From Ceratodon purpureus (taxonomy: Eukaryota; Streptophyta; Bryopsida; Pseudoditrichales; Ditrichaceae): a DNA stretch of 64,000 bases. Positions 6,247-63,781 of the stretch are shown one piece after another (position 1 is the stretch's first letter; each line of letters opens with the position of its first letter). The notes beneath the pieces were generated by a model, which was not told where the DNA came from, ran no database searches, and worked only from the letters and a program-made list of their open reading frames with translations. A program made the position numbers and the translations under genes. The stretch spans positions 24,831,752 to 24,895,751 of the forward strand of contig CM026421.1 of the NCBI GenBank assembly GCA_014871385.1, read 5' to 3'.

Positions 6247-6250
6247 TTAA

Positions 6251-7179
6251 CCCCTAAGTGCCCAAGCATGTTTTGGGTCTCGAAACCTCCAAAACAGTGA
6301 TTTTTGACCACCTTATAGAAACGACAATTTGAACCAAATAAATTTTCTTTTTTTAGACATCCAGCCGTAAGATCTTGTACTTAACCTTTTTTTAAAGTAC
6401 TGATAAACTTTTCAGCCGTTGGATGTTTATCGTCTTAGAGATTATAATATTCAAAGTTGCAGCAAAACTTTTTTTGGGCATTGGTTGAATGACATAGTCA
6501 AAATGGTGCAAAGGGGGAGTTGAAGATTGTTACCCCAAACATTTTGCTCATATTTTTTTCCATGTAGGTAATCAAGTTGAGTACCTCCATGGAAAATTTG
6601 AAAGACTCATTCCTTTTTTTGGCTCTCATAAAAATTATTTTCTAGAAGCAGGTCTAAAATCGTTGATATAGTAAAACATGCATGACGTCACGTATATTTA
6701 GTTTTAGAAAAATCTGAACGGTGGTTAGGTGCCTTTATAAGTTTTTGATTTTTGAAAAAAATTATTTTTGAAAAATTTCAAAATCTCAAATTTTGACAAA
6801 TTTTGAAAGAATTTATTCAAAAAATACTGAAAATATTGAAGCTTGTCTTTGTAATTTTTAGAGGCTGCCCTTGTAAAATTGGTATATTTTTTGACTTGGG
6901 TCTCTTTGGAATTTCAGTGGTGGTTTGGTTATGAACATATTTCAAGAATTGTTTTTCAAAAAAAGCCTAATTTTAAGCTGCCCGTTTTGGACTTGAAACC
7001 TAAAATTTCTAGATGAAGGTCTTCAAATTGGAATTTGGCTTTGCAAATTTTACCACGTACACTTTGCAGTACAGGGAGCATCCAGTAAAAATATTAGGCA
7101 AAAATATTAATTTTAACCCCTTTATCTAGACTGACCGAAATAGCAAAAAGCCGTTTTGGCTTTCCTGGGCACTTAGGGG
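6251..7179 (+). mobile_element. TTAA-flanked CCCCTAA element, subfamily A, 929 bp
   Basis: It starts CCCCTAAGTGCCC and ends GGGCACTTAGGGG, so the ends are inverted repeats of about 13 bp. TTAA lies outside both (6247-6250 and 7180-7183). The motif CCGTAAGATCTTGTAC lies about 115 bp from the left end; this is the polarity used for all members. TTAA duplication plus CCC-type termini is the hallmark of the piggyBac superfamily. No transposase is encoded. Internal sequence matches 8760-9688, 27718-28612 and 59810-60738. The subfamily letters A-F are my own. Confidence 0.85.
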
Positions 7180-7183
7180 TTAA

Positions 7184-8463
7184 ACACTCTCGGGAATTCA
7201 TCACTAGGAAGGTTACGCGGCCAAGAAATGGCATCTTCATGTGATCCTCTTTCCCTCCTATATTCTTTCTGCAGCACCTTGGTGCTTGGTTCTACTTCAA
7301 GGTAATAAAATTTATTCCTAATATCCTCAAGAAGAAAACAGTGAGTTACCACACGTGATGAACAAATCACTTATTTTAATTATCATTTGTTTGAAACAAA
7401 CAAATTACTTAGGAATGCAGCTTGCAAGCTCATCACGGAATTACATGATTAGGATCCTAAGTTAATTCTCTCAAACTTTGCCCTGCTATCGTGCACTCAA
7501 TGCCCCGCCAGTTTTCTGGCAAGCTTTATACACGGAAACGAATGCCGTATATTAAGAGACACTTGGCAGCCTCCATGTCCATGCAGCCAGATTTAGGACA
7601 AGATGTTATTATACTTTTCAATTCAATTCAATATAATTTACCTTATTTTATTTGGAAACATTCTATTTCTATTTCTTCCGAAAAGTGCCACAGAAGGTTG
7701 CACCATCAGTCAGAGGGCATCAGAATTCGGAAATGCGAAAATGTTCTTCTTCTATATACTGTAGTATTAAAACTGAAGTCAGAATACAGTACTGTAGGTG
7801 TTTAAATGTGGAAAGGTGATGGTTTCGAAATACAGTAATTCACAAACTGATTCACATAATTGAAAGCTGGGTGACAAAACAAAAAACAAATCTCTGTTGT
7901 AAGCTCTGTTGATACCACAGTACCCTTTTGAATTAAACTACCCCCCAACTTCTAGCTCCAGCTGCCCTCGGCGTCACCAAGTCAAGCGCCGAGCCATGGG
8001 TCACTGATCTCAGCCCATTTTCTGCTGCCCGGGAAGAGTAGGCATACCTGCCAAGTGGGACGTTTTGTCGGTGGAGGCCGTGTGAATGGTAAAGTAAGAT
8101 TTTATAAAATGATTTTGTTCTCTCGCTCCGTCCTTTATGAGCTTCGCTTGTCTTTCGTCTCTTGACGCTCTGTATGATTTCCATAACACGGTTATGTCAT
8201 AAAGATCAGTCTTCATGGGATCATGGGAGAAGTCTTCACCTACTTGACGATTTTAACTTGTTCGTTTGGATGATTCACAACTACAGTAGAGAGTTCTGTT
8301 GCATGCAGAAAGTTGCTTCCTTGTTCCTTACAGCTTCCTGGCCCCATGGTTGTGGAGCGTGTAAGTGGTCCACCCCGGAGGATGAGACCATGGATCAAGT
8401 TGTGTATTTCACTCTTTTATTAGCGTAAAAATAAAATTACCATAACATCATTGAAGGTTTGTT
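7184..8463. other. gene-free stretch
   Basis: Base composition is more balanced at 7930-8400 than in the surrounding DNA, and open frames of 60-100 codons occur on both strands. None shows a recognised motif or plausible splicing. It could hold exons of an unrecognised or decayed gene. Confidence 0.35.
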
Positions 8464-8467
8464 CTAA

Positions 8468-10211
8468 CCCCTAAAGGACGGAGGGGTATTTCCACAGTTT
8501 TTGAGTATCTACAGTGCTATTCTTGCATTTTCCAAAGTAAGAGAAATTTGAGAATTACCATAAGCAATTTAACCGTAAGATCTTTGAAAGTAGTGGGCTA
8601 CCCAAATGTATACCAAATTCTGGGTTTGGGGAAGGAACGGATTAAGAGATAATAACATGTGAAGTTTGGAAGATTACTTAATTTCTAGAATACTAACAGT
8701 GTGTTTCCATGGTTGATTGAAATTTGCTACTTCAAAATTTATAAAAACTTGGTAATTAACCCCTAACTATCCTTAAAACCCAAAATGGGTTTTTGCACTT
8801 TCGGGCAGCCCAGATGGAGGGGTTAAAAGTAATATTTTTTTTCAAGATTTTTACTGGATGCTCCCTTTACGGTAAGGTCTATGTAGTAAAAATTTTGAAG
8901 CCAAATTCCAATTTTAGAACCTTCATCTAGAAATTTTAGGTTTCAAGTCCAAAACGGGCAGTCTAAAATTAGGTCTTTTTACAAAAACAAAAATTGAAAT
9001 ATATTCATAACCAAATCACTATACAAATTCCATAGTGACCCAAGTCAAAAAATTTACCAATTTTACAAGGGCAGCCTCCAAAACTTACAAAGACAAGCTT
9101 CAAAATTTTTAGTAATTTTTGAATTTTTCCTTTAAAAATTTGTCAAAATTCGAGATTTTTGAATTTTTGAATTTTTTTTTCTTCTGAAAATCACAAATTT
9201 ATGAAGGTACCTACTCACCGTTCAATTTTTCTTTAGCTCACAAATTGTTTTTGTAATGCATGTTTTACTATTTTGTCAATTTTATACCTTCTTACAGAAA
9301 ATAATTTTTATGAAGGTCTAAAAAGCGTTTTTTTGGCCTAAATTTTTGCATGAGCATACCTAACCTAGTTAGCTACATGGAAAAAAATGTGACCAAAATG
9401 TTTGAAGTAATAATCATCAAGTCTCCCTTTGGCCCATTTGCACCATGCCTCTCGGCTAAGGCCCAAAAAAATATCTGCTGAAACTTTGAACACTACAATC
9501 TCACTAATGAAAAACATCCAACGGTTGAAATTTGAATCAGTTCTTGCAAGTAGGGTTAGGTACAAGATCTTACGGTTGAAATTCCAAAAAAAGATAAAAA
9601 ATTTGTTTCATATCCTCGGGAAGGCATAGTGGTAAAAAATCGCAGTTTTGAGGATTGAAGCTCTCAAAAACACAAGGAAATTTAGGGGTTAAAGCTGATT
9701 CTTTTCTATAGTATGTTAGAAACATGCACATTTTTTTACAGATTTTTCCAAGTTACCAATTTGGAGAAAATGGGTTTCATATAAGTTTCACTCTGAATTT
9801 TAATTTTTTCAACATGGCACTTTTTGGCAAATTCAAAAGGGTTTTTGATAAATCCAAAATGGTGAAGCCATAAAGTAGTGGTCATACAAGCATTTCCAAA
9901 AAAAAAATGCTAAAAAAAAAATCCACAAGCAGAGATCTTCATTTTAGTGCACAATGTGCTCAAAGTACAGTTGAAACATTGTCTCTCTAGAAACACTAAC
10001 TTCACTGTAGAAACATAGGACCGACCCATGTTCTTTTTTTTTCTAAAATCAGGTTTTCATTTTTTCACTAAAATTTCAGCGTATTCTTATTGCCAACTTG
10101 ATTTTAAATAGGTTAGGAACAAGAAACACTCAAATCTGACTCTTCTAGGGCATTTAACATGATTTTCTATTTATGGCGCAACCCAAAAGTGGTTGCTTCG
10201 TCCTTTAGGGG
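8468..10211 (+). mobile_element. CCCCTAAA element, subfamily F, CTAA-flanked, interrupted
   Basis: The left end is CCCCTAAAGGACGGAGG and the right end, reverse-complemented, CCCCTAAAGGACGAAGC, so the inverted repeats match over 13 bp. Outside both ends stands CTAA (8464-8467 and 10212-10215) instead of TTAA. CTAA is a known minor piggyBac target. The shared motif AACCGTAAGATCTT begins at 8571, 103 bp from the left end. A complete subfamily A element (8760-9688 with its TTAA pair) is nested inside; without it the element is about 811 bp. Confidence 0.8.
8760..9688 (-). mobile_element. TTAA-flanked element, subfamily A, 929 bp, nested
   Basis: Terminal sequence CCCCTAACTATCC on the left and AAATTTAGGGG on the right, with TTAA at 8756-8759 and 9689-9692. 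It is very similar along its whole length to 59810-60738 in inverted orientation, so both look young. The motif AAGATCTTACGGTTGAA lies about 111 bp from the right end. It is inserted inside the element at 8468-10211 and is therefore the later arrival. Confidence 0.87.
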
Positions 10212-10215
10212 CTAA

Positions 10216-10861
10216 AATAATTCAATAAAGATGTAATAAAACCAAAAAAAATATAGTGCCAGTAAAAAAATACCATAAAAATGAATTTTTTACTTTGAGC
10301 CATTTGAAGTCTTCTTAGTTAATTTGTTTTGGAGAAGAATTTTTATTTTTATTTTTTTTCCTTGGAAAAAATTGAATATTTGTTCTATAGGTGGCAAACA
10401 TGCTACGGTTCCAATTGAACTTCACCTTATTCATGTGGTAGATGAAGGTAAGTGTCTACTACAACTAAATAAATAAATAAATAATAATTTAGTGACAATT
10501 CAAAATTATTGAAATTTTTTAAAGCATTTCAAGTAGAAAATTTATATCAATTTTAAAACACACTATATAACTTTAAATTTTGTGCTTCAAAACACAACGA
10601 ATAATGCTATGGTGTATCATGTATGAAAAAAATTATTATACTAAAATTAGGAAAGATGGTTTTTGTGGTGATATATGATCAAGTTATATCGATTGTGAAA
10701 TGCTCGACTTAATAAAATTTGATTATAAAATTCAAAATAATCATAAGGTAAAATTTACAAAATACATTTACTTAGGCCACCACAAATGTGATAATGGAAT
10801 TTTTAATGGCCTAAAAGAAGAGTTGATAAAATTAATTTGAAAATCCAAAATAGACTACATG
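10216..10861. other. AT-rich spacer
   Basis: Very AT-rich, with a short AAAT microsatellite near 10466-10485. No coding, RNA or terminal-repeat signal was seen. Confidence 0.5.
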
Positions 10862-10865
10862 TTAA

Positions 10866-11786
10866 CCCCTAAACTCCCAGGCAACCAAAATGTGGTCGCC
10901 GGCTATTTTGGGCAGGGTCCCACAGTGGTAAAAATAACTTTCAAGTTTTGAGATTTTGCATGTGGATTCTCTAGGTCATTACGTACATGCCAAGCTTTGT
11001 TTCATAAGATTTGGTTATGTAATGCAAAAGTTATGAATGGTTGAAGGTAAAAAATCTCAACGGGGGCAGCCACAAAAATTTTCAAATATATTTAAAAAAA
11101 TAAAATAAAAATATCATCATTTTGTAGAGATTCATATTCGGATAGAATGCTTTGATTAGTCCATTCGAACAAGTGAGGTAAAAGGTATGACAATTCATGT
11201 TATGCGGGCAGTTTGGTCAAATCTTCATGAAAAAAAACTTCAATAGCTCATTTTGAATACAATTTTGACAATTTTTCAAAAATAAAAATCGTAAAAGTTT
11301 TTTGTTATGTATCACATCATTTCTACTATTGAAAGTAATGTTATCCACTTTTATGTGGATGTAATTAGCAATTTAGTTTTTCCTTGTATTCTACATTGTA
11401 TTTTGATTTACATCTTTTGAATATGAAAATCTAGGTTTTTTCATTTGATATTTTTTGTGTATATTCTCAAGTCATTTTTATATTAGAATATATGGAGTTG
11501 TCCATTTCAAATTTGTTAAGCATATTTTTTGAAAATTCATTGAAAGTGCGATTTCAGCTTTTTGAAGGATTGAAAAAAACTTGTTCTTTAATTTTGAACA
11601 TTACGATCTTGCAATCGGTGTTGTATTTTTCTCTAAAATTTTGGAAAGGAATGTCTCAATAAGTTAGCTATAAGATCCTACGGTTGAAATTGCAAAAAAA
11701 TATGACAAAATTGGAAAATCTAACTTGCTTCACAAAAGAGTGTTGAAGGCAGTTTTCAATGTGAATTCATGGTAGGCATTTAGGGG
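10866..11786 (-). mobile_element. TTAA-flanked element, subfamily D, 921 bp
   Basis: It begins CCCCTAAACTCCCAGGCAACC and ends GCATTTAGGGG. The left flank is TTAA (10862-10865) and the right TCAA (11787-11790), one base from a perfect duplication. The motif AAGATCCTACGGTTGAAATTGC lies about 110 bp from the right end. The left 60 bp contains the complementary stretch ccaaaatgtggtcgcc and gctattttggg. Its only relative here is 51816-52422, which is internally deleted. Confidence 0.78.
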
Positions 11787-11790
11787 TCAA

Positions 11791-12815
11791 ACCATATTTA
11801 CAACTTTCTTTATGTTGTTGCGCCTTCAAATATAATAAAAAATAGTCTAACCAACTTCAATTATACATAAAAAGATGGCAATTTATCATGATTTATTGTT
11901 TATAAAGAATGACATAAAAATGTGAATAGATAGCTCTTACATAAAATTTGCCATAAATTGGCAATATCCAACAATTGGGTATTAAAACAAGGTGTATAAC
12001 TTTATGACACAATAATAGCTTTTTCTCATTTGAATCCCTAATTTTGTGAATGCTCTCCACTTCTCTCTACACTCTCTTATCACATGTGAGTCAAACCACG
12101 TTTGATATACTATATGTTGTAACTATCCTTCTCTATCTCTACAGCTACAAGATCAAAAACTATTGGTTTGAGTGAACATATGGATGGAACTTATTTGCAC
12201 ACAAAGGGACTCGCACTCCCTTCCTCAACTTTGCCAAGTTTGAATTGTCATCTTAATATCAATGTTATATGTAGAAGCTCATGTGCCATTACACCAATTG
12301 GATTCAAAGTAGATAATGAAAAAAAATTAATGGAATTATTGTTTAGAACATCTTCAAGTCCGTGGATTAACCCCTAAAATTCCTTGATAATACATTGATA
12401 AATACATTCTAAAACATCAGTTTTGAATATTTAAAGAGAGATTGATTTTATCAATTTATTTATTTATTTATTTAAATTCAACCATGATATCTTGAATTCA
12501 ATAATTAAAAATGCTTGTTTCAATATAGTTAATCTGGAAGTCACCTTGAATTTTGAAAGACATTATGTGATTTGCTATATTGTGTTGTTATTACTACTAT
12601 TAAATTCTACTCCAAATATGGTCATATCAAATAATTTTTCTCTCTATTGGATAAAATGGTCGATCAACATATAGATTGACTTTAAATTAGTCATAGTATG
12701 GATTTGAGATGAGCTATGTAACAATTAGGGGATTAGAAACATCCCCCCCTCCCCCCCCAAGTTGTAGAAATATATATAGATGGGATAAATATGTGAAAAA
12801 ACTTTTCCTCTCTAA
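11791..12815. other. AT-rich spacer with one orphan element end at 12371
   Basis: At 12367-12370 TTAA is followed by CCCCTAAAATTCCTTGA, which resembles the motif-proximal end of subfamily C (compare 62240). No matching right end was found, so this is probably a truncated copy. The rest is AT-rich with TTTA microsatellite near 12455-12475 and a C-rich run near 12742-12760. No gene was recognised. Confidence 0.45.
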
Positions 12816-13728
12816 CCCTAATTGGTCGTGATCATTTTCCGCCAAAAACACTCCAGAAACTATTATTTCAGAAGCAAGAGTGAATAAACAAAAAATAAAA
12901 TTGCTTTTGCATCTCTAACCGTAGAATCTTACTCAAGACTTTTAAAAGATCATGCACAATTTTTTTAAATAAATTTAACCGCGTGCATTAGAGGATTGTA
13001 GAGTTTGAAGTAAGAAACAAAGTTTTTTCTATCCTTTCAAAACAAGTTCAACTAACTTTGACTACTCTTCGAGTAAACTTTTTCGACTATACATGTTGGG
13101 AGTTTTGTACTAAAATGATGTACATGATGTTATTTGTGCACTTAATTTTAGATTTAACAAAGAGGTGTAGCATTCTAAAAAACATTGTATAAGGAACACG
13201 GGTTTGTGTTATTGTTAATACTCATTCTATTTTATTGATAAACTATTTTTTGTTAGAATAAAAATCCATGCGGTCAAAACATAGGTATATGTCTATTCTT
13301 GAGGTAAAAAAAAGAAGAGAATAAAATAAATTGAAAAATCTCTATCTTCTATGTGATAAAGATTTTTTTTTTTTCATGGTTGGCCGGAAAAAACGATAAA
13401 ACTTTGGCTCCTTATAGAATGAAATCTTCCACAGTATAAGAATTTATTTTTGATTACCTCAAATCCAATCATGTTTAATAGTCACTTGCACTAAAAGTCA
13501 TAAAGGTAGTTGAAGGTGTATCAAAATTTTGGAGCTGTCCAAGAAGTAGAAAAATTTGATTCAGGCACCATAAACAAAAAATTTCAATGTCTAGTGCAAA
13601 AAAAAATATACTCCCACGAAGCTCTTGCGATTCCCTATGTCTACAAAATTTTTATGAAACTTATTGGCATCGTGAGAACTTGCCCAAAATTTCAAAAAGC
13701 CCATTCTAGGACTTTAACCGTTTAGGGG
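12816..13728 (+). mobile_element. CCCTAA element, subfamily E, about 913 bp
   Basis: The left end reads CCCTAATTGGTCGTGATC (one C short of the consensus), after CTAA at 12812-12815. The right end reads CCGTTTAGGGG and is followed by TAAA, which is CTAA or TTAA after a single-base loss. The motif variant AACCGTAGAATCTT starts about 104 bp from the left end. The body matches 61015-61936 closely, and 43613-44527 more distantly. Confidence 0.72.
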
Positions 13729-14371: not shown

Positions 14372-15186
14372 CCCCTAAACGGCCAAGGGTGTCTTTGCTC
14401 AAAACTGCCTCCAAATAGTCCCTTTTGAAAGCAAGCCAGATAGTGCAAAATTGGAACCAATTTTGGTATTTCCAACTATAAGATCTTGTATCTAACTATT
14501 ACGTTTACATGCCTACCAAATCTCACACTCTCATTCCTTACCATTTGAGATATCATAACATTCAAAGTTGAAAAAAAAATTTTTTTACCCTGCAAAACGG
14601 GGATAGCAGTATTTTGGGGTCCTAAAAAACCATTTCTTAGATTAGATTTGGAATGGGCCTCTTTAGATTCTTGTTCCGAGGTGAGTTAGGTACATGTCCA
14701 CAAAATCTCATTCCCATGCAAGGTGTAGAACTTTGAGAAAATCATCAAATTCCACAAGGGGGTATGCTGAAATTCACATACAAAGGCCGTTTTTTTACAA
14801 TAAAAATAGCATATGAAAAATTCTTGGATTGAAAATCCAAACGGTGGAAACATGCTTTAGTGTGTCTTCTATATATAGGAATTTTATATTTTTGGAAAAA
14901 CTAAAATCTCAATTTTTGGTGGAATTTCAAAATTTCGTCTTTAGGCAGATTTGGGCAGTTTTGGGCAGAAATTGCTGCATTCACAGTGGCTGAGAGCTCG
15001 CCAGTGGAAGGGCGTTTTATGCTCAGAGGAGCATAACTTTTCCTCACTTCATCCAAAAAAAATAAAAAAATATCCCCATAAACCTTTTTCCACAAAAAAA
15101 TTCAAAAAAATTCAAGTAAATTTGATTTTTTAAGAACCTGCATAAATTTCAAATACACCCATTCTAGGACAATGGCCGTTTAGGGG
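14372..15186 (+). mobile_element. TTAA-flanked element, subfamily B, 815 bp
   Basis: It starts CCCCTAAACGGCC and ends GGCCGTTTAGGGG, a perfect 13-bp inverted repeat, with TTAA at 14368-14371 and 15187-15190. The subterminal motif (here ctataagatcttgtatc) lies about 103 bp from the left. The gggcag decamer array of this subfamily is short here, about three units at 14944-14970. The closest relative is 37285-38144. Confidence 0.85.
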
Positions 15187-15849: not shown

Positions 15850-17147
15850 CCCCTAAAGGACAATTTTCCTGGAATGGGCTTTTTAAAAATTTGGGCAAGT
15901 TCCTAGAATTCCAATTTAATTCCTAAATCTTTGAAAAAAATAATGTAGGTAGGCATTTTGAAGAGGGTTGTGAAATTTTTTATTTATTATTTATTTTTGA
16001 ACATACTAAAAAAAAGTTACGAGGTTTTGAGTGTCAAAAGCTGCATTCAGCCAAACTTCAAGCAAGCTCACAGCTACTGTGAATGCAGCAAATTCTGCCC
16101 AAAACTGCCCAAAATTGCCAAAATCTGCCAAAATCTGCCAAAATCTGCCTAAAGACAAAACTTGGAAATTCCACCAAAAATTGAGATTTTGATGTTTTAC
16201 AAAAATAAAAATTTCCATGTATAGAGAAGGCAGTAGAGCATGTTCCCACCGTTCGGATTTTCAATCCAAGAATTTTTCATATTCTATTTTTATTGTCAAA
16301 AAACGACCATTGTTTGTAAATTTCAGTATACCCCCTAAGGTAGTAATACCATAAACCAAGACCCCCCAATAACCTGTGTAGTAGACTTATTCTGAAACAG
16401 CACCAACAGAAATCATGATCCTTGATTTTTGGTACAATTAGATAAGCGTTGAGATTTTTTGTGAATCGTTGATATACCTGACGAGCGTTGAGATCTTATA
16501 TTGGTTTTGGGTAGAGTTGCTTTTGGAATAGTGCCTATGCCAGTAGCAGACTTTACGAAGTCTACAACACAAGAAATGGGGTGGACAAACTTTTCAGCTA
16601 AATTATTTCTAAGAAATTGTATTTTCATCAGAAAATTATGAAAACAACTTCTATCATTCTGTTTTCAACTTGTCTATGTACTTGCAATAATTTCCTGAGA
16701 AAATGATAGTTCAAATTGCTCAAAACTCCTTATTCTATCGGTTTATGGTATTACTACCTTAGCGGAAAATGATTTTTTTGGCAACCTTCCACAACTTTTT
16801 TTAATATAATTTTTTAATACAATTAGCTAACTTAGTATTCTTTGACGTGCATCAAAACCCTCAAAATCCATAATGTAAAAAAATGGATTTTTGGGCCTTC
16901 AAAACTTTGTTGTTCCCTTTTTGCGCAGGGAAAAAAAACTTGTTTTTCAACTTTGAACGTTATGATCTTGCAATTGGTGAGGAATGACTATGTAAGATTT
17001 GGTGGACATGTAGACATAGAAGTTGGCTACAAGATTGTACGGTTAGATGCACTAATTAAGACTTCAACTTTGCAAAATCGACCTTGCTTTGAAGAGGGGC
17101 TGTTTCTGAGGCAGTTTTGATGAAAAATACCCTTAGAACTTTAGGGG
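15850..17147 (-). mobile_element. TTAA-flanked element, subfamily B, interrupted, 1298 bp
   Basis: The ends are CCCCTAAAGGACAATTTTCC and GAACTTTAGGGG, with TTAA at 15846-15849 and 17148-17151. Without the 422-bp TA-flanked insertion at 16338-16759 it is about 874 bp, in line with sisters at 34828 and 35916. The decamer array (about six units of the ctgcccaaaa type) is at 16094-16150. The motif copy near the right end is changed to aagattgtacggtta. Confidence 0.85.
16338..16759. mobile_element. Tc1/mariner-type MITE, TA-flanked, 422 bp, nested
   Basis: Perfect 20-bp terminal inverted repeats, AGGTAGTAATACCATAAACC, are flanked by TA on both sides (16336-16337 and 16760-16761). The sister TTAA elements at 34828-35688 and 35916-36795 carry the unoccupied site (ccccctagcag and ccccctagtgg) with a single TA, which directly confirms a 2-bp TA duplication. 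The interior has no coding potential. Confidence 0.9.
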
Positions 17148-19997: not shown

Positions 19998-20949
19998 CCC
20001 TTAAAGGACAATTGCCCTAAAATGGGCTTTTCTAAATTTCGAGCAGGTATCTATGACTTCAATTTAAGTCAAGATTTTTTGAAACTTTTTGTAAATGTTT
20101 GCTGTAACAAAGACTTTGAGAGATTTTATTTTTAAATTTTTTTTATTAATTAATTAATTAATTTATTTTTCAATTAGACATCTAAAAAATAGTTATGGTG
20201 TCCAAAGTGAAAATTTATGTTCAGTGGGCAATTCAAGCAACCATCATAAATACATCTATTACCTCTAAAATTATTTTTATAAAAACGTAATGTCATCTTT
20301 GAAATTTCCAAAATAGAAACTTCTTTGAGTTCAAAATGTTTACTCCACAAAATATCAAAGTTTCCACACCGTTTTCGGCAGTGTACCAAAAAAGCTTCTT
20401 CTTTCTTTCATAAAAGTTGCAAAGTTTGTTTCTTTAGGTTTTTTCTTTTTTTTCACTTAAAGGGTGGACATCAATCTTTACTTAGGCCGTTTGGATTGGG
20501 ACCATATGAAATAATCAAATTTCTAGGAAAGAAATATGAATTAGCATTCTCATGTATTCAACTTAATAAAAATACTTTTTTCAACATGCTACACTTCTCT
20601 TTTATGTGTAGTTTTTTTAATACAATTAGCTAACATAGTTTTCTTTGTCATGCACCAAAACCTCCAAAATCATAATCCAAAAAATCTAAGAAAAAAAAAG
20701 TTAGAGTGTATCAACCTAGTTAAACATTGTGTGAAAAAAAGTTTGTTTTCAAATTTCAATCGCTATAATCTTCTAATTTGTTTGGTCGATTATGATGAAA
20801 TTTATTGAGCTATTCACTACAATAATCTAGTTGAGGATCTTACAGTTATAATTAGAAACTACTGATTTTTTAGTTATTCGTGTTTTTTGCATAGGAAATG
20901 GTAGTTTTGGAGCTTTTTTTGGTGAAACATAGTCAAGGAACATTAGGAG
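19998..20949 (-). mobile_element. TTAA-flanked element, subfamily C, 952 bp
   Basis: The ends are CCCTTAAAGGACAATTGCCC and GGAACATTAGGAG, each one or two bases off the consensus, with TTAA at 19994-19997 and 20950-20953. The motif (gatcttacagttataatt) lies about 100 bp from the right end. Co-linear with 24464-25399 and 33573-34492. Several substitutions in the ends suggest an older copy. Confidence 0.8.
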
Positions 20950-24463: not shown

Positions 24464-25399
24464 CCCCTAAAGGACAATCTTCCACATTTGGGCTTTTTTA
24501 GAATTCGGGCATGTACCTATGACTTCAATTTAATTCAAGATTTTTTGAAACTTTTTGTGAATGTTTGCCATAGTAAGGACTTTGACGGCATCTATTTTTT
24601 TTTATTCAATTAGACATTTAATAAAAATATTTATGGTACCCAAAGTGAAATTTGGTGGTCGGTGGGCAGTTTGAGCAGCCATGTTGAATATATTTGTTAC
24701 CTCTCAGATTTTTTCTATAAATACTTAATGCTGTCATCTTTGATATTTTTTAATAAAAAGCTTCTTTCAGTACAAAAGGTTCACTCCACAAAATATCAAA
24801 GTTTTTTCAGCGTTTCGGCCAATGTACTAAAAACACTTCTTCTTTCCTTCATAAAAGTCAGAAAATTTGTTTTTTTAGGTTTTTTCTTCTTTTCACTTAA
24901 AAGGATGGACATCAATCTTTACTTTGACCATTTGGATTGGGACTTTATAACATAATGAAATTTCTAGGAAGGAAATATGAAATAGCATTCTTTTCTATTC
25001 AACTCAAAAAAAGATTTTTTTTAACATGGTACACTTGTCTTTTGTGTGTAGTTTTTTTTGTACAATTAGCTGACATAGTCTTCTTTGTCATGCACCAAAA
25101 TTTCCAAAATCCATAATGCAAAAAACCTAAGGAAAAAATAGTTGGAGTATGTCGATCCAATCAAAAATTGTGTCCAAAAAGTATGTTTTTAAATTTCAAT
25201 CATTATAATCTTCTAATCTCTTCTAATCTTTACGATTGATTATGATGAAATTTATTGAGTTATCTACGACAATAATTTGTTTGAAGATCTTACGATTAGA
25301 GATAGAAAATAATGATTTTTTAGTCATTCATGCTTTTTACTTTGGAAATGGCAGTTTTGAAGCTTTTTTTGGTGAAACATAATCAAGAAACTTTAGGGG
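24464..25399 (-). mobile_element. TTAA-flanked element, subfamily C, 936 bp
   Basis: The termini are CCCCTAAAGGACAATCTTCC and GAAACTTTAGGGG, both at consensus, with TTAA at 24460-24463 and 25400-25403. The motif (gaagatcttacgattaga) lies about 100 bp from the right end. A short local duplication (cttctaatct twice) occurs near 25209-25225. Confidence 0.85.
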
Positions 25400-37284: not shown

Positions 37285-38144
37285 CCCCTAATTGACCAAG
37301 GATGTTTTTGCTCTAAACTGCCACCAAATACTCCCTTTTGAAAGCAAGCTGGATAGTGAAAAATTGAAACCAATTTTGGTATTTCCAACCGTAAGATCTT
37401 GTATCTAACTTCTATGTCTATGTGCATGTCAAATCTCACAATCTGATTCCTTACCATTTGAGAGATTATAACATTCAGAGTTGAAAAAAAAGTTTTTTTT
37501 ACCCTGCAAAAAGAGGACAGCAGTATTTTGGGGTCCTAAAAAACCATTATTTTGAGTTAATTTGGATGGCAACTCTTTAGATTCTCGTTCCTAGGTGAAT
37601 TAGGTACATGTCCACAAAATCTCATACCCATACAAGGTGTAGAACCTTGAGAAAATCATCAATTTCCACAAAGGGGTATGCTGAAATTCACATACAAAGG
37701 CCGTTTTTTTACAATAAAAATAGCATATGAAAAATTCTTGGATTAAAAATCCAAACGGTGGAAACATGCTCTAGTGGCTCTTCTACACATAGGAATTCTT
37801 ATTTTTGGAAAAAAATAAAATTTAGATTTTTGGTGGAATTTCAAAGTTTTGTCTTTAGGCAGATTTGGGCAGATTTGGGCAGTTTTGGGCAGTTTTGGGC
37901 AGTTTCGGGCAGAAATTGCTGCATTCACAGTGGCGGAGAGCCTGCCCGTGGAATAGCGTTCTATGCTCAGAGGAGCATAACTGTTGCTCACTTCATCCAA
38001 AAAAAATAAAAAAAATATTCCCATAAACCTTTTGAAAAAACCATTTTCCACAAAAAAATTCAAAAAATTTGAAGTAAATTTGAATTTTTAGGAACCTGCC
38101 CAAATTTCAAAAACGCCCATTCTAGGACTTTGGTCAATTAGGGG
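37285..38144 (+). mobile_element. TTAA-flanked element, subfamily B, 860 bp
   Basis: It starts CCCCTAATTGACCAAGG and ends TTGGTCAATTAGGGG, a 14- to 15-bp inverted repeat, with TTAA at 37281-37284 and 38145-38148. The motif AACCGTAAGATCTTGTATC begins about 103 bp from the left end. The decamer array, about six units of the gggcagtttt type, is at 37858-37912. Nested in the Harbinger-like element. Confidence 0.87.
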
Positions 38145-40925: not shown

Positions 40926-42313
40926 ATGGCTTCCACTGGTGCTGCTGCCAACGCAGTGATCATCATCGGCGCAGTACTGCTCCTCTGCAGCCTTCACATT
41001 GGTGCGTGACTGATTGTTGGCTGCACAAGGAAGATAAGGGTGTGAGTTTGATAGACTTTGATTTCAGTTGCTGACCGGTTCATTGTAAAAATTGTTGTGC
41101 AGATGCCAAGCCGAGGTACAACGATGTGGACAACTGCGGGAAATGCAAACACAAGTGTCCGCGGGCGCCGCCCCACAGCGAGCGGACATGCAAGAACGGG
41201 AAGTGCGGCACGAAATGCAAGCGGGGATGGCTGGACTGCGATCAAAAGAAGGCCAATGGGTGCGAGGTGGATGTGAAGACTCTGAAGACCGATGTCAAGA
41301 ACTGCGGTAGCTGCGGGAACGTTTGCCCGGTGCCACTTTCTAACCAGTTTGGAACTGGTGTGGCTACTTGCACCAAGGGCGTGTGCGGACATACACTGAC
41401 TTGCGCAACGGGTTTCGCGGACTGTGACGGCGATCCCAGCAATGGGTGCGAGTTGGATGTGAAGAGCAACGTCAATAACTGCGGTAGCTGTGGCAGCGTT
41501 TGCCCGACAGGTCAGTTAGGTCAGTTGGCTACTTGCACCGACGGCATGTGCGGACTTGAATCGACTTGCGCAAAGGATTTCGGGGACTGTGACAGCGATC
41601 CCAGCAATGGCTGCGAGTCAGATGTTAGGAGCGACGTGAAAAACTGCGGTAGCTGCGGCAAAGTTTGTCCGGTACCACTTACGAATCATGGTAGTGGTGA
41701 GGCTACTTGCACCGACGGCGTGTGCGGATACACACTGACTTGCGCAAAGGATTGGGCGGACTGTGACGGCGATCCTAGCAATGGCTGTGAAATAGATCTT
41801 GCGGGTATTTTTTCAAGCATATATAATTGTGGTAGCTGCAATCATGTCTGCCCCCCCTTCCAGAACTCGACCATTTGGTCCATTTGCGATGCTGGTGTTT
41901 GCGGTTATGAGTGCAATTTTTTCCTAGGAAACCTTGGAAATTGCGACAATGATGTTAGTAACGGCTGTGAAACAAATCTGGGCAGTAACGACGTGAATAA
42001 CTGTGGGGGTTGTGGTCAAGTCTGCACTACTCCTCCCAGGGGCCAGATTGCTTGCAATAGAGGTGTCTGCACAGGCAACTGCCTCAAAGGATTTTATGAG
42101 AATTGCGACAGAAATCCGACCAATGGCTGCGAAACCTCTGTGTGGTCCGACGTAAATCATTGTGGAAGCTGCGGAAATGTCTGTCCCTCTCCTCCCAACG
42201 CCACCCCTAGTTGCAGCTTCAACACGTGCAAGTTCACCTGCAATGCCGGATTCTCGGACTGCGACTTGGTTGCAAGCAATGGCTGCGAGGTCCATGGCGT
42301 CTGTCCACTTTAA
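40926..42313 (+). CDS. secreted Stig1-like cysteine-rich repeat protein A, 428 aa
   Basis: Two exons, 40926-41001 and 41103-42313, with a 101-bp GT-AG intron. The context caccATGGCT is a good plant start. Residues 1-27 form a signal peptide (hydrophobic core V-I-I-I-G-A-V-L-L-L) with likely cleavage after D-A at 26-27. The mature part is seven modules of about 50-60 residues, each with N-C-G-x-C-x-x-x-C, followed in most by C-x-x-G-x-C and D-C-D-x-x-x-S-N-G-C-E. The C-G-x-C-G-x-x-C core resembles plant Stig1 (stigma-specific protein) domains, and the longer D-C-D-NGCE pattern also occurs in bacterial secreted repeat proteins. Probably apoplastic and disulfide-bonded. Function is not assignable beyond that. 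Confidence 0.9.
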
Positions 42314-51815: not shown

Positions 51816-52422
51816 CCCCTAAATGCACTGGCGACCAAAATGTGGTCGCAGCCTATTTTGGGCAGGCTGCTACGGTGTCAAAAATAATTATTAAGTTTTG
51901 AAATTTTGTATTATTTTTGATTATTTTTGAAAAGTTTTGAAAAGTTTTTGGTTACTTGTTACATCATTTTCACTATTGGAACTGATAATATCTACTTTTA
52001 TGTAGACAAAATTAGTAGTTTAGTTTTTCCCTCTATTCTACATCTTATTCTAATTATTTATGGTTTGAAGATGAAAATCAAGGTTTAATGTTTTGAATTT
52101 TTTTGTGAAGAATCTCAAGTCATTTTTTAAATAGAATATTTAATTGCCCATTCTAAAATTTTAAAGCATATTTTCTGAAAATTCGTTGAAGCCAAGATTT
52201 TAGTTTTTTGAAGGATTGGAAATAACTTGTCTTGGAAGTTCAAACATCATGATCTTGTGATTGGTTTGGTTTCTGACTCTAAGAATTTGAGAAATAGCTT
52301 TTTTAGGAGTTATTTATAAGATTCTATGGGTGAAATTGCAAAAGAATGTTATGAAATTAAAAAAATCAGCTTGCTTTACAAAGAGGTATCAAAAGACATA
52401 AATTTTCAAGAGCATTTAGGGG
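51816..52422 (-). mobile_element. CCCCTAAA element, subfamily D, CTAG-flanked, 607 bp
   Basis: It starts CCCCTAAATGCACTGG and ends AGAGCATTTAGGGG. CTAG stands outside both ends (51812-51815, 52423-52426). It is related to 10866-11786 but lacks about 310 bp of its interior. The shared motif is eroded to agattctatgggtgaaat. It lies upstream of the MULE pseudogene. Confidence 0.75.
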
Positions 52423-56127: not shown

Positions 56128-57513
56128 ATGGCTTCCACTGGTGCTGCTGCCAACGCAGTGATCATCATCGGCGCAGTACTGCTCCTCTGCAGCCTTCACA
56201 TTGGTGCGTGACGGATTGTTGGCTGCACAAGGAAGATAAGGGTGTGAGCTTGATAGACTTTGAATTCAGTTGCTGACCGGTACTTGTGGAATTGTTGTGC
56301 AGATGCCAAGCCGAGGTACAACGATGTGGACAACTGTGGGAAATGCAAACACAAGTGTCCGCGGGCGCCGCCCCACAGCGAGCGCACATGCAAGAACGGG
56401 AAGTGCGGCACGAAATGCAAGCGGGGATGGCTGGACTGCGATCAAAAGAAGGCCAATGGGTGCGAGGTGGATGTGAAGAGTCTGAAGACCGATGTCAAGA
56501 ACTGCGGTAGCTGCGGGAACGTTTGCCCGGTGCCACTTTCGAACCAATTTGGAACTGGTTTGGCTACTTGCACCAAGGGCGTGTGCGGACATACACTGAC
56601 TTGCGCAACGGGTTTCGCGGACTGTGACGGCGATCCCAGCAATGGGTGTGAGTTGGATGTGAAGAGCAACGTCAATAACTGCGGTAGCTGTGGCAGCGTT
56701 TGCCCGACAGGTCAGTTGGGTACTGGTGCGCCTACTTGCACCGATGGCGTGTGCGGACTTGCATCGACTTGCGCAAAGGATTTCGAGGACTGTGACAGCG
56801 ATCCCTCCAATGGCTGCGAGTCAGATGTTAGGAGCGACGTGAAAAACTGCGGTAGCTGCGGCACCGTTTGCCCGGTGCCACTTTCAAATCAGTATGGAAC
56901 TGGTGCGGCTACTTGCACCCGAGGGGTATGTGGATACACACTGACTTGCGCAAAGAATTTCGCGGACTGTGACGGCGATCCCAGCAATGGCTGTGAAATA
57001 GATCTTGTGGGTGTTTCTTCTGGCCCCGACCACTGTGGTAGCTGCGATAATGCATGCCCCGCCTCCAAGAACTCGACCGCTTGGGCGTACTGCAATGACG
57101 GAGTCTGCACTTTTGAGTGCAATTTTTTCCTAGGGCTTGGAAATTGCGACAATGATTACAGCAACGGCTGCGAAACGTATCTCCTTAACAACGTGAACAA
57201 CTGTGGGGCTTGTGGTCAAGTCTGCACTACTCCTCCCAAGGGCCAGATTGCTTGCAGTGGAGGTGGCTGCGCAGGTAACTGCGTCAAAGGATTTTATGAG
57301 AATTGCGACGGGAATCCCAACAATGGCTGCGAAACCCTTGTGTGGTCCGACGTAAATCACTGTGGAAGCTGCGGAAATGTCTGCCCCTCCCCTCCCAACG
57401 CCACCCCTAGTTGCAGCTCCAACGCGTGCAAGTTCACCTGCAAGGCCGGATTCTCGGATTGCGACTTGGTTGCAAGCAATGGCTGCGAGGTTCAAGGCGT
57501 CTGCCCACTTTAA
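56128..57513 (+). CDS. secreted Stig1-like cysteine-rich repeat protein B, 428 aa
   Basis: Exons 56128-56203 and 56303-57513 with a 99-bp intron. It has the same structure, signal peptide and seven modules as the paralogue at 40926-42313. Exon 1 encodes an identical signal peptide, the first three modules are almost unchanged, and most differences fall in modules 3 to 6. Copy B gains residues in two loops (G-T-G-A-P-T and S-N-Q-Y-G-T-G) and loses the same number between modules 5 and 6, so both proteins are exactly 428 residues. All core cysteines are kept, which suggests both genes are under selection. Likely role: extracellular disulfide-rich protein, function unknown. Confidence 0.9.
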
Positions 57514-59531: not shown

Positions 59532-59681
59532 AGAGTTTTAAAACAACAACATACAACTAATATTAAAGGAGATATCATCTTCTAAAGGTCGGAATTCTAT
59601 AAGTCTGTATCCTTATCATTTCATATTTAAATCTTTTGAGCAAAGTATGAATCTTCTTGCCATTCTTCAAACATTAATTGA

Positions 59682-61010
59682 TTCCTAAATTTCCTTGACC
59701 ATTTCTCACCAAAACAACTTCAAAAACTGCGATTTTTTAAGTTGTGAAAAAAATAACCAAAAAATATTTTTCTTTGCATCACCAACTGTAGAATCTTGCC
59801 TAGGATTAACCCCTAAATTTCCTTGTGTTTTTGAGAGCTTAAATCCTCAAAACTGTGATTTTTTACCACTATGCCCTCCCGAGGATATGAAACAAACTTT
59901 TTAACCTTTTTTGGAATTTCAACCGTAAGATCTTGTACCTAACCCTACTAAAAAGAACTGATCCAAATTTCAACCGTTGGATGTTTTTCATTAGGGAGAT
60001 CGTAGTGTTCAAAGTTTCAGCAAATATTTTTTTCGGCCTTGGCCGAGAGGCATAGTGCAAATGGGCCAAAGGGAGACTTGATGATTATTACTTCAAACAT
60101 TTTGGTCACATTTTTTTCCATGTAGCTTACTAAGTGAGGTATGCTCATGCAAAATTTTAGGCCAAAAAAACGCTTTTTAGACCTTCATAAAAAATATTTT
60201 CTATAAGAAGGTATAAAATTGATTAAATAGTAAAACATGCATTACAAAAACAATTTGTGAGCTAAAGAAAAATTGAACGGTGAGTAGGTACCTTTATAAA
60301 TTTGTGATTTTTAGAAAAAAACATTTTTAAAAAATTCAAAAATCTCGAATTTTGACAAATTTCTAAAGAAAAAATTCAAAAATTACTAAAAACTTTGAAG
60401 CTTGTCTTTGTAAGTTTTGGAGGCTGCCCTTGTAAAATTGGTAAACTTTTTGACTTGGGTCACTATAGAACTTGATTAGTGATTTGGTTATGAAAATATT
60501 TCAATTTTTATTTTTTTTAAAAGACCTAATTTTAGACTGCCCGTTTTGGACTTGAAACCTAAAATTTCTAGATGAAGGTTCTAAAATTGGAATTTGGCTT
60601 CAAAATTTTTACTACATAGACCTTACAGTAAAGGGAGATCCCAGTAAAAATCTTGAAAAAAAATATTAATTTTAACCTCCCCATCCAGGCTGCCCGAAAT
60701 AGCCAAAACCCATTTTGGGTTTTAAGGATAGTTAGGGGTTAATAAAAGATTATGAATAAAAAAAATTATTCAATCTAATTGCGCAAATTAGAATTTTATT
60801 GAATTTGAAGTAGAATAGAATTTTTTTGAATTTTTCTTTCTCTCTTATACCTAAATATGATTGGTAGACTTTGACTTCTTTTTATAATAAAATTTTCAAC
60901 TATACAAAATGAGCCGGGATTTATATTAGTGTCGTTTTACCTTATATTAATTATTTGCACATCAAATTTTAGAGGTCGCAAAGCAATGTAGCATCAAGGA
61001 AAAAATGTTG
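59682..61010 (+). mobile_element. old subfamily E element, copy B remnant, interrupted
   Basis: The counterpart of 43613-44527. The first 124 bp (59682-59805) and a further 268 bp (60743-61010) flank the inserted subfamily A element. It stops at the TTAA where 61015-61936 begins, so its distal half is missing here. Confidence 0.6.
59810..60738 (+). mobile_element. TTAA-flanked element, subfamily A, 929 bp, with empty site known
   Basis: The ends are CCCCTAAATTTCCTTG and AGGATAGTTAGGGG, with TTAA at 59806-59809 and 60739-60742. The motif AACCGTAAGATCTTGTACC begins at 59921, 111 bp from the left end. The orthologous position in copy A (43737-43740) has one TTAA and no insert. Nearly the same sequence as 8760-9688, inverted. 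No transposase frame. Confidence 0.93.
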
Positions 61011-61014
61011 TTAA

Positions 61015-61936
61015 CCCCTAATCGTCTGTGACCATTTCTCACCAAAAACACTTCAAAAACTATCATTTGATAAGCAAGAGTGAAGAAACCAAAAATAAAA
61101 TTGCTTTTGCATCTTTAACAGTAAAATCTGACTTAAGACTTCTAATAGATCATGTACAAAAAATTTCAATAAATTTGACTGTGTGGATTAGAAGATTGTA
61201 GAGTTTGAAGTAAGAAACATTGTTCTTTTTTATCCTTTCAAAACATTATGAGATGACTTTGACTTCTCTTTGAATAATTTTTTTGCACTACACATGTTGG
61301 AGGTTTTGTACTTATGTAATGTAGATGATGTTAATTACTTGTGCACCAAATTTTAGATTTAAGTAAAAGGCGTAGCATTGTGAAAAACATTGTATAAGGA
61401 ATATGGGTTCATGTTACTGTTAATACTCATTCTATTTTTTGATAAATTGCTTTTTATTAGAATAGAAATCCATGCGGTCAAAAGAAAGGTCTATGTCTAT
61501 TCTTGAAGTTCAAAAAAGAAAAGAAATAAAGAATAAAATCTCTATCTTTTATGTGATAAAAGATTTTATTTTTTTTGTGCTTGACCGGAAAAAATGAGAA
61601 AACTTCAGCTCCTTATAGAATGAAAATCTTCCATAATATAAGAATTTGTTTTTGATAACCTCAAAACCAATCATGTAAGTTACTTGCATAAAAAAATCCC
61701 AAAGGTAGTTGAAGGGTTTATGAAGATTTTGGAGCTGCCTAAGAAGTAGTAAAATCGCTTCAAGCACCATAAATATTTTTTCCAATGTTTAGTGCAATAT
61801 AAATTATATTCTTGTGAAGCTCTTACAATTTTCCATATCTACAAAAGAAAATTAAAAATTCATTCCAAAATTTGACATTGTAGGAACTTGCCTGAAATTT
61901 CAAAACACACATTTCAGGACAATGGCCATTCAGGGG
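61015..61936 (+). mobile_element. TTAA-flanked element, subfamily E, 922 bp
   Basis: It starts CCCCTAATCGTCTGTGACC and ends GGCCATTCAGGGG, with TTAA at 61011-61014 and 61937-61940. The motif is weakened to aacagtaaaatctgac, 102 bp from the left end. It sits exactly at the junction between direct copy B and the inverted segment that follows. Confidence 0.82.
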
Positions 61937-61940
61937 TTAA

Positions 61941-63781
61941 GATGTGCTTATATACTGATTTTTTTTTCAAAAATAGAGAAATCTATTGATGAATTGTAGG
62001 TGCATGGTTGGCTATGGATGGCATGATCTTATAGGATCTTATAGGAATACTGATTTGAATTCCTTATTGTTGTAAATAACCAAATTCTCAATCAGCACTA
62101 TTAAATGTCTATATTTCATTGAATATTTAGAGACATAATTTGATTTAGGTTTATTGAAAAAAATCTCATTGTGCACTATAAGATGCATATATTTTAAACA
62201 AGATCAGATCAATTTTTGATGAAAATGTGAACATTTTAACCCCTAAGGTTCCTTGACTATGTTTCACCAAAAAACGCTTCAAAACTCCATTTCCAATGTA
62301 AAAAGCATGAATGACTAAAAAATCATTATTATTAAATTCTAACCGTAAGATCTTAAAAGATATCATTGGAGTAGATAGCTCAGAAACATTCATCATAATC
62401 GACCGTAGAGAATAGAAGATTATAGCATTTGAATTTTGAAAACATACTTTCTTGACACAGTTTTTAACTAGGTCGACACACTCTAACTTTTTTTTCTTAG
62501 GTTTTTTGCATTATGGATTTTGGGGGTTTTGGTGCATGACAAAGAAGACTAAGTTAGCTAACTTCATAAAAAACATTATACACAAAAAACAAGTGCAGCA
62601 TGTTGAAAACAATATTTTTATTAAGTTAAATACAAAAACGTGCTAAATCATATTTCTTTCCTAGAAATTTCATTATGTCATAATATCACAATTTAAACGG
62701 TCAAAGTAAAGATTGATGTCCATCCTTTAAGTTAAAAGAAGTTTTTTTAGTACACTGCTCGAAATAGTGAGAAAACTTTGATATTTTGTTGAGTGAACCT
62801 TTTGTACTGAAAAAAGTTTCCAAAAATCACGACTTAAATTGTAGTAACATGTACATGCCCGAGTTCTAAAAAAGCCCAAATGTGGATGGTTGTCCTTTAG
62901 GGTTTAATTTATATAATTTCATTTAAAAGCTAATAAGTTTCTTAGAGATCTTTGGCAAGTTCTTACAATGTCAAATTTAAATGAGGTTTTTTGAATTTTT
63001 TTGTACATTGAGAGAATTATAGAAGCTTTATAAGCATCTAATAATTTCTTTCACTAAAAGTGAGAAGAATGTTTTTTTTACAGTGCTAGAGTTATTTCTC
63101 TTACTCATTAAGTAAACTCTTAATTGGCTTTGAGATTATAAAAAGTAAAAATAAAAATCTTACATTGTGGGAGATTTTTATTCTATAATGAGCTGAAGTT
63201 TTCTCATTTTTTTTGGTCAAGTTGAAAAAAAAACTCTTTCCTTATCAAATAAAAAATAGATATTTATTTTTTATTTTTATTTTTATTTTTATATTTTTTT
63301 TCTACTTCAAGAATAGACAAAAATCTTTGTTTTGATAGCATGGATTTGTATTTTAACTAAATATGGTTTATCAAAAAAATAGATTGAGTATTAGCAATAA
63401 CATGAACATATGTTCCTTATACAACTTTTTTACAATGTTACACTTTTTTTAATCAAAAATTTGGTGCACAAGTAACTAATATTGTGTACATTATATTGAT
63501 ACAAAACCTCTAACTTATGTAGTGCAAAACATTGACACAAAAGAAGTCAAAGTTTACTAATCTTGTTTAAAAAGGATTTAAAAAAACAATGTTTCTTACT
63601 TCAAACTCTATAATCTTTTAATCCATGCGGTTGATTTTATTGAATTTTTTTGCGCATGATCCTCTAAAAGTCTTTAATCATATCCTACGGTTTAAAATGC
63701 AAAAAAATCTTTGATTTTGGTTTGTTTACTTATTCAGTAATGGCAGTTTTTTTAGTGTTTTTGGTGAGAAATGGTCATGGT
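61941..63781 (-). repeat. inverted copy of the distal part of segment A
   Basis: From about 61974 the sequence is the reverse complement of 44880 back to about 43630. Shared blocks include ggatggcat/gatcttatagg, ccaaattctcaatc-gcac and caagatgcatatat. The 62930-63781 part is the old subfamily E element in reverse, missing its outermost left end. The TTAA element 62240-62903 interrupts it. Confidence 0.75.
62240..62903 (+). mobile_element. TTAA-flanked element, subfamily C, 664 bp, with empty site known
   Basis: It starts CCCCTAAGGTTCCTTGAC and ends GTCCTTTAGGGT, with TTAA at 62236-62239 and 62904-62907. The motif AACCGTAAGATCTT begins at 62341, 101 bp from the left end. About 270 bp shorter than other C copies, by internal deletion. 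The unoccupied counterpart in copy A (44601-44604, opposite strand) has one TTAA. Confidence 0.88.

What the first reader, a model, noticed from the sequence alone, without database searches (positions are those of the whole stretch)
6247..62907. Large TTAA-flanked, CCCCTAAA-ended element family with piggyBac-like features in a plant-like genome
About twenty elements in six subfamilies share only the terminal CCCCTAAA/TTTAGGGG, the flanking tetranucleotide and a subterminal motif. Together they fill roughly 18 kb. TTAA targets and CCC-type termini define piggyBac, a superfamily described mostly from animals and seldom from land plants. No transposase is seen here, so an autonomous partner must exist or have existed elsewhere.
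Basis: partly seen in the sequence, partly recalled or inferred. Interest (0 to 1): 0.9.

Follow-up and report, generated by a model that had tools for sequence, protein, structure and literature searches.

The report
Moss piggyBac transposons and miniature relatives
The repeated sequences in this plant window are short passenger copies of piggyBac, a jumping-gene type best known from animals, and the same genome (probably a moss) holds larger copies with an intact-looking enzyme, some so alike that they probably jumped recently.

Summary
The window carries 18 delimited elements (16.0 kb) ending in CCCCTAAA-like repeats; 14 have TTAA on both sides, one CTAA/CTAA, one CTAG/CTAG, two imperfect flanks. 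TTAACCCCTAAA occurs 9,407 times in the 362.5-Mb genome, against 128 for the reversed control. The missing autonomous partner was found: five elements of 5.3, 5.9, 6.1, 6.4 and 10.5 kb, delimited at both ends, with CCCCTAAA ends and TTAA flanks, encode transposases matching Pfam DDE_Tnp_1_7 (E 1e-80 to 5e-71); the two tested match solved piggyBac and piggyBat. The genome has at least 116 such domains, 93 without a stop. Two copies are 99.95% identical over 6.1 kb with different flanks at the end compared, so movement was probably recent. Forty scored places match one nested element's joined flanks across the junction. Genome size and a 110.5-Mb contig fit the moss Ceratodon purpureus (inference). 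PiggyBac is already reported from plants: a new member of a known kind, notable for abundance and apparent recent activity in a land plant.

The parts
6251..7179 (.). non-autonomous piggyBac element, 929 bp, TTAA/TTAA; cluster with 8760, 27718, 59810
8468..10211 (.). non-autonomous element with target duplication CTAA/CTAA; contains the nested element 8760-9688 (811 bp without the insert and one TTAA)
8760..9688 (.). non-autonomous element, 929 bp, nested, TTAA/TTAA; flanks joined without it match 40 scored places of the genome across the junction
10866..11786 (.). non-autonomous element, 921 bp, TTAA/TCAA; related to 51816-52422
12371..12814 (+). lone TTAA-CCCCTAAA end without a mate (partial element)
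12815..13728 (.). degraded element (ACCCTAAT...TTTAGGGG, flanks TCTA/TAAA), related to 61015-61936
14372..15186 (.). non-autonomous element, 815 bp, TTAA/TTAA; one end 81% identical over 180 bp to an end of autonomous element L030
15850..17147 (.). non-autonomous element, TTAA/TTAA, with an unrelated insertion of about 0.4 kb
19998..20949 (.). non-autonomous element, 952 bp (CCCTTAAA...ATTAGGAG), TTAA/TTAA
   Evidence: (right end read from the printed sequence)
24464..25399 (.). non-autonomous element, 936 bp, TTAA/TTAA
27718..28612 (.). non-autonomous element, 895 bp, TTAA/TTAA; 93% identical to L020
33573..34492 (.). non-autonomous element, 920 bp, TTAA/TTAA; end 80% identical over 117 bp to autonomous L029
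34828..35688 (.). non-autonomous element, 861 bp, TTAA/TTAA; 95.5% identical to L025
35916..36795 (.). non-autonomous element, 880 bp, TTAA/TTAA
37285..38144 (.). non-autonomous element, 860 bp, TTAA/TTAA; end 81% identical over 181 bp to L030
51816..52422 (.). non-autonomous element, 607 bp, target duplication CTAG/CTAG
59810..60738 (.). non-autonomous element, 929 bp, TTAA/TTAA; 94% identical to 8760-9688
61015..61936 (.). non-autonomous element, 922 bp, TTAA/TTAA
62240..62903 (.). non-autonomous element, 664 bp, TTAA/TTAA
63147..63777 (.). fragment related to 61015-61936 (opposite strand)

Best explanation
These are non-autonomous (miniature) piggyBac transposons moved in trans by piggyBac transposases encoded elsewhere in the same plant genome. 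Shown: CCCCTAAA ends and subterminal sequence shared between miniature and autonomous copies; 4-bp, mostly TTAA, target duplications; transposase genes with the DDD residues; near-identical copies at different sites. Inferred from the known piggyBac mechanism: the transposase binds the ends, cuts the element out with TTAA hairpins, re-inserts it at a TTAA-like site, and the old site closes without a scar. That one of these transposases moves the window copies is inferred from the shared ends.
For: L029 (1351-6679) and L030 (861-6723) carry TTAA-CCCCTAAA ends and frames of 1,023 and 1,050 codons with DDE_Tnp_1_7 at E 4e-80 and 1e-80, matching PDB 6x67 and 9c0f. A third lineage was delimited at both ends at C1:21369496-21375895 and C5:17358026-17364139, with homology beginning just at TTAA. 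A fourth, C1:1275836-1286355, has a 16-bp inverted repeat starting CCCCTAAA, TTAA on both sides and a 903-codon DDE_Tnp_1_7 frame. The DDD positions and the C-terminal Cys/His pattern are in 8 of 8 aligned transposases of this genome. Ends are shared: L030 with 14372, 37285 and L024 (about 81% over 180 bp), L029 with 33573 and others, both ends of the third lineage with L022. Genome-wide: at least 116 domains, 93 without stops, and 9,407 TTAACCCCTAAA. The empty-site join matches 40 of 40 scored places (295 candidates): 34 cover all 400 query bases, six start at base 2-3 or end at base 380-399, all cross the junction at base 200. L007 and L038 show one 4-bp copy at the site.
Against: Target use is not strictly TTAA: CTAA/CTAA and CTAG/CTAG duplications occur, and 17 of 77 ends have another flank (decay may explain some). 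The relatives at the empty site read CTAA, not TTAA. Miniature and autonomous copies share only the ends, at 72-81%, so no miniature was traced to one parent as a deletion, and no close autonomous partner was seen for the cluster 10866/51816. Not all piggyBac copies belong to the system: L049 and L050 show no CCCCTAAA at their homology border. The part before the core is about 430-510 residues in three frames, against 108-133 in the solved relatives. zf-Tnp_2 stays below its Pfam cut-off. No expression or movement was observed.
Confidence: 0.96

Rival explanations
1. The elements belong to another superfamily with 3- or 4-bp or TTAA target duplications (Kolobok, Sola, PIF/Harbinger), and the resemblance to piggyBac ends is superficial.
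For: Non-TTAA duplications (CTAA, CTAG) exist; TTAA duplication alone is not diagnostic (recalled). A PIF/Harbinger transposase (DDE_Tnp_4, E 9e-36) lies 3-7 kb from a CCCCTAAA end in L040.
Against: Five delimited elements with the very same ends enclose DDE_Tnp_1_7 transposases. The L040 transposase lies within its own 22-nt inverted repeat (2259-2280 / 7808-7829, reading ACCCCCTTTACACC inside, with TAA on both sides), not within CCCCTAAA ends.
Confidence: 0.02
2. The system is an extinct fossil: the miniature copies are old and no transposase is functional now.
For: Many window copies are 75-85% alike; 23 of 116 scored domains hold stops; several ends and flanks have decayed.
Against: 93 of 116 scored domains are free of stops. 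L051 and L052 are 99.95% identical over 6,100 bp and L053 about 99.1% to L051, with different flanks. Three lineages keep a plausible start exon, intron and long second exon.
Confidence: 0.2
3. Contaminating animal or fungal DNA supplies the transposases, which are unrelated to the repeats of the window.
For: piggyBac is best known from animals; the genome held here is unnamed.
Against: The 116 domains lie on all of C1-C13 and on C53; C1 also holds the window. The transposase elements share ends with the repeats of the window.
Confidence: 0.01

Closest known systems
piggyBac of Trichoplusia ni (PDB 6x67/6x68)
   Same: TTAA target, CCC-type ends (recalled: T. ni ends start CCCTAGAAAG), DDE_Tnp_1_7 core with DDD plus a further D, C-terminal Cys/His-rich region
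   Different: region before the core several times longer with Gly-rich repeats; apparent two-exon gene; elements of 5.3-10.5 kb; ends CCCCTAAA; some CTAA/CTAG targets
piggyBat of Myotis lucifugus (PDB 9c0f)
   Same: core matches at E 2e-25 (L029) and 3e-27 (L030); TTAA flanks (PMC11707139, passages)
   Different: low overall identity; host
PiggyBac-like elements reported from plants (survey PMC4438587; fern table in PMC6890710)
   Same: same superfamily in plant genomes (passages)
   Different: the fern table lists PiggyBac with the figures 1,230 and 122,417 and 0.00%; here at least 116 nearly full transposase domains and 9,407 exact ends in 362 Mb
Plant MITEs (PMC12550479, PMC12595863)
   Same: short non-autonomous DNA elements in high copy number
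   Different: term searches of the two main texts found no mention of piggyBac or TTAA; group averages of MITE length there are 156-251 bp (passage), window elements here are 607-952 bp apart from two with inserts

Membership tests
piggyBac superfamily | transposase with the DDE_Tnp_1_7 core | tested here: met
   7 of 7 transposase frames scanned are over the cut-off; 116 of 116 scored genome matches; 0 of 14 control genomes
piggyBac superfamily | three catalytic Asp in the core (DDD) | tested here: met
   8 of 8 aligned transposases of this genome (TIDEM / MDNFF / RGVDVADQL in L029, L030); one search aligns them with 6x67. In L031 a pattern scan found the first and third motifs but not the second; it was not aligned
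piggyBac superfamily | C-terminal Cys/His-rich domain | tested here: met
   Cys/His pattern in 8 of 8; Pfam zf-Tnp_2 only below its cut-off (15.7 and 17.7 bits against 24)
piggyBac superfamily | TTAA target duplicated on insertion | tested here: met
   14 of 18 window elements; 60 of 77 ends, 4 of 81 predicted dropped; five delimited autonomous elements; minority CTAA, CTAG
piggyBac superfamily | short terminal inverted repeats beginning CCC | tested here: met
   CCCCTAAA at both ends of miniature and autonomous copies
piggyBac superfamily | seamless excision restoring TTAA | not testable with these tools
   empty-site relatives show the site before insertion, not excision
PIF/Harbinger | DDE_Tnp_4 transposase within the CCCCTAAA ends | tested here: not met
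   the one found (L040) has its own inverted repeats and TAA flanks
Kolobok / Sola | own transposase type within the CCCCTAAA ends | not tested
   no model of these was searched; the transposases found are DDE_Tnp_1_7

The most novel reading that the evidence does not exclude
A land plant, probably the moss Ceratodon purpureus, carries a piggyBac system that is still moving: several autonomous lineages with complete-looking genes and a long N-terminal extension, one of them a 10.5-kb element that also carries a B3 DNA-binding domain frame, driving thousands of long miniature elements, with target choice relaxed to CTAA and CTAG. It could be an endogenous plant piggyBac system usable in a haploid moss.
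Probability: 0.45. Interest if true: 0.75.

Novelty: new member of a known kind. Interest (0 to 1): 0.55.

Why it matters
PiggyBac is known and engineered mostly from animals; its use in plants is described as still limited (PMC10794571, passage). A plant genome with over a hundred piggyBac transposase domains, most of the scored ones without stops, near-identical copies and thousands of miniature relatives gives plant-adapted transposases and ends to test. It also suggests that piggyBac can be a large DNA-transposon load in a land plant, in a haploid-dominant moss if the host is named rightly. And it explains a repeat family that a generic annotation could leave as unknown.

Tried and rejected
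Sola/Kolobok-type origin was considered from the CTAA and CTAG duplications and dropped once DDE_Tnp_1_7 transposases were found inside the same ends. L024, a 2.0-kb element, was read for ORFs: nothing over 145 codons. Beside single or distant ends I fetched L031-L048 (L031 and L032 overlap). Ten of their frames, not all, were scanned against Pfam: one piggyBac transposase (L031), one PIF/Harbinger transposase with its own ends (L040), one frame next to it with a sub-threshold Myb-like match, a B3 domain (L031), RNase H (L034), DUF4218 (L048), and four without a match at E 0.001. L049/L050 are a different piggyBac lineage. A tree of 28 proteins (midpoint root, 7 of 25 inner branches open, some long branches) puts L029/L030 and L051/L054 in one group of 11 rows (100/97) with unnamed database proteins, and L049/L050 apart; with no organism names nothing was concluded on ancestry or horizontal transfer. 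Genome counts of CTAACCCCTAAA, CTAGCCCCTAAA and TTAGCCCCTAAA were asked for and never answered. Structure prediction was not run, as loci from the fetch from genomes are not named among its permitted inputs. Bouallegue 2017 and the Ceratodon genome paper are not held.
Full report
What is there. The window lies at C1:24831752-24895751 of a 362.5-Mb genome in 151 contigs. Exact TTAACCCCTAAA occurs 10 times on the + strand and its complement 6 times; the genome's density predicts 1.7 for 64 kb, so the window is a dense patch. I delimit 18 elements, 16,047 bp with the nested one counted inside its host: 14 with TTAA on both sides, one CTAA/CTAA, one CTAG/CTAG, two with imperfect flanks (the right end of the element at 19998 was read as 20949 from the sequence printed, where the table row used a wrong end). 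Sixteen are 607-952 bp long; two are longer through inserts (1,298 and 1,744 bp). No stop-to-stop frame over 165 codons overlaps them. They form four BLAST clusters, with the host element best counted as a fifth kind.

More than chance. In the whole genome the 12-mer is found 4,663 times forward and 4,744 times in reverse, against 70 and 58 for the pattern read backwards. To find ends without using the terminal bases, I searched the window and 19 fetched loci with bases 13-110 of known ends as probes. Of 81 predicted ends, 77 have at least 6 of 8 bases of CCCCTAAA within 5 bases of the predicted place, and 60 of the 77 are preceded by TTAA; the rest are CTAA (4), CTAG, TTAG, TTGA, TTTA (2 each) and five singles. 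Three biases should be known: each locus had been chosen for holding an exact end, the probes come partly from the same ends, and the end was refined towards the motif.

The autonomous partner. From the 100 places listed I fetched four neighbouring + to - end pairs 5 to 11 kb apart. L029 1351-6679 holds a frame of 1,023 codons and L030 861-6723 one of 1,050. Both hit DDE_Tnp_1_7 (E 4.4e-80 and 1.4e-80), T. ni piggyBac 6x67 (E 3.6e-29 for L029, 7e-28 for L030) and piggyBat 9c0f (2.2e-25 and 2.7e-27). They are 68% identical over 637 aligned columns. The third pair, C1:1275836-1286355 (10,520 bp, L031/L032), has a 16-bp identical inverted repeat starting CCCCTAAA, TTAA on both sides, a 903-codon frame with DDE_Tnp_1_7 at 5.2e-71 and a frame with a B3 DNA-binding domain. 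The fourth (L034, 7.0 kb, unlike ends) has no frame of 180 codons or more wholly between its ends. The three catalytic Asp positions, a further Asp three residues after the third, and a C-terminal Cys/His pattern are present in 8 of 8 aligned transposases of this genome (L029, L030, L049-L054). L029, L030 and L051 each have an upstream mini-exon starting with ATG (MPRKNSLSWKGKE, MPRRGARSWRGKE, MPTQRSRKRGKQ), a GT...AG intron and an in-phase second exon (read by eye). The core domain starts at residue 465, 513 and 439 of these frames, after Gly-rich repeats; in 6x67 and 9c0f the match starts at residues 132-133 and 108-116.

How many and how young. A search of the genome with PF13843 scored 116 of 998 candidates; all 116 pass the cut-off, 93 have no stop within the match (my count from the table), and they lie on C1-C13 and C53; none of 14 control genomes has a match. 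This is a lower bound, and it does not say how many belong to the CCCCTAAA system: of the eight loci read for ends, six (L029, L030, L051-L054) have TTAA-CCCCTAAA ends, L049 and L050 do not. L051 and L052, 13.5 kb apart on C1 in opposite orientation, are 99.95% identical over 6,100 bp. L053 (C5) is about 99.1% identical to L051 and lacks some 0.26 kb; L054 (C6) is 98.4% identical over 3.2 kb and less elsewhere. At the same TTAA-CCCCTAAA end the four copies continue into four different flanks. Both ends were reached for two copies: C1:21369496-21375895 (6,400 bp) and C5:17358026-17364139 (6,114 bp), TTAA on both sides, with homology beginning exactly at TTAA. This is what recent cut-and-paste movement leaves.

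Linking small and large. The left end of L030 matches 14372-15186, 37285-38144 and L024 (about 81% over 180 bp); an end of L029 matches 33573-34492 (80% over 117 bp) and, more briefly, others; both ends of the L051 lineage match L022 (72% over 230 bp and 80% over 87 bp), a member of the cluster that holds 6251, 8760, 27718 and 59810. For the cluster 10866/51816 no match was found to these three lineages; that of 12815/61015 has a 105-bp match to L030 (77%) and a 50-bp match to L029. The other autonomous copies of the genome were not compared.

Empty site. Element 8760-9688 sits inside element 8468-10211. The joined flanks (200 + 200 bases, one TTAA kept) match 40 of 40 scored places across the junction at 87-92% identity (295 candidates; 34 cover all 400 bases). 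In the two held copies, L007 and L038, the site reads CTAA once. This supports a 4-bp duplication and suggests either insertion into a TTAA variant of this family or into CTAA followed by change.

Another transposase nearby. L040 holds a PIF/Harbinger transposase (DDE_Tnp_4, E 9.3e-36) some kilobases from a CCCCTAAA end. It lies within its own 22-nt inverted repeat at 2259-2280 and 7808-7829, with TAA on both sides of the inner ACCCCC-type ends, so it is a separate element and does not speak for a Harbinger origin.

Mechanism. Known piggyBac biochemistry (recalled; target and hairpin also in passages of PMC11707139) supplies the steps not seen here: binding of the ends, TTAA hairpin intermediates, seamless excision. 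I hold the identification as piggyBac at 0.96 and the full reading of a still-moving system at about 0.45; only the recency of some transposition is supported by data.

Host. A 362.5-Mb genome with a 110.5-Mb contig (C6) agrees with what a review says of Ceratodon purpureus: sex chromosomes each over 100 Mb, about 30% of a 360-Mb genome (PMC8000587, passages). The name is an inference; no marker gene was compared.

Known or new. PiggyBac in plants is not new in itself: PMC4438587 lists it among superfamilies found in all groups (passage), PMC8086355 and PMC10813416 say plants (passages), and PMC6890710 tabulates a trace in a fern (passage). In the open library, piggyBac with TTAA and 'moss genome' and with 'mosses' and 'DNA transposons' returned no paper. 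PiggyBac with 'bryophyte' gave 12 (11 listed, two opened: in the moss-genome paper the word was 'piggybacking'; the other is the fern paper). PiggyBac with Physcomitrella and transposase gave 6, of which only the fern paper was opened. Other listings were opened in part. The key survey and the Ceratodon genome paper are not held, so priority is not established.

Noticed in passing
G000 contig C6 (110.5 Mb): Only 19 of the 116 scored piggyBac domains lie on C6, which is 30.5% of the genome (binomial P 0.0004). Only best-scoring copies were listed, so decay on a sex chromosome could cause the same bias.
   Followed up: partly
L031 1284-2042 and 5989-8697 (C1:1275836-1286355): A 10.5-kb CCCCTAAA-ended, TTAA-flanked element holds both a piggyBac transposase frame and a frame with a plant B3 DNA-binding domain: possible gene capture, or a gene caught between nested elements.
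   Followed up: partly
L040 2259-7829: A PIF/Harbinger element with its own inverted repeats and TAA flanks, a DDE_Tnp_4 transposase and a frame with a sub-threshold Myb-like match.
   Followed up: partly
window 16338-16757 approx.: Unrelated small inverted-repeat insertion (GGTAGTAATACCATAAACC ... reverse complement) inside element 15850-17147, a second kind of miniature element.
   Followed up: no
window 41075-42313 and 56257-57513: Two long, similar frames of a Cys-rich repeat protein (NCGSCGxxC ... NGCE units) without a Pfam match at E 0.001; apparently a duplicated gene within the window.
   Followed up: partly
window 31269-31988: Frame with a weak match to the C-terminal part of pyridoxal-dependent decarboxylase, below its cut-off; perhaps a glutamate decarboxylase exon.
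   Followed up: no
L049 and L050: A second piggyBac lineage, 94% identical copies on C10 and C3 over 3.6 kb, about 34-37% identical in the core to the CCCCTAAA-ended lineages and without such ends at the homology border read.
   Followed up: partly
P0001 (protein search hit): A JGI protein on a 3.5-kb contig is 87% identical to the L030 transposase, so a close relative exists in another public data set.
   Followed up: no
element ends, window and genome: CCCCTAAA resembles the plant telomere unit CCCTAAA (recalled); probably coincidence, not pursued.
   Followed up: no
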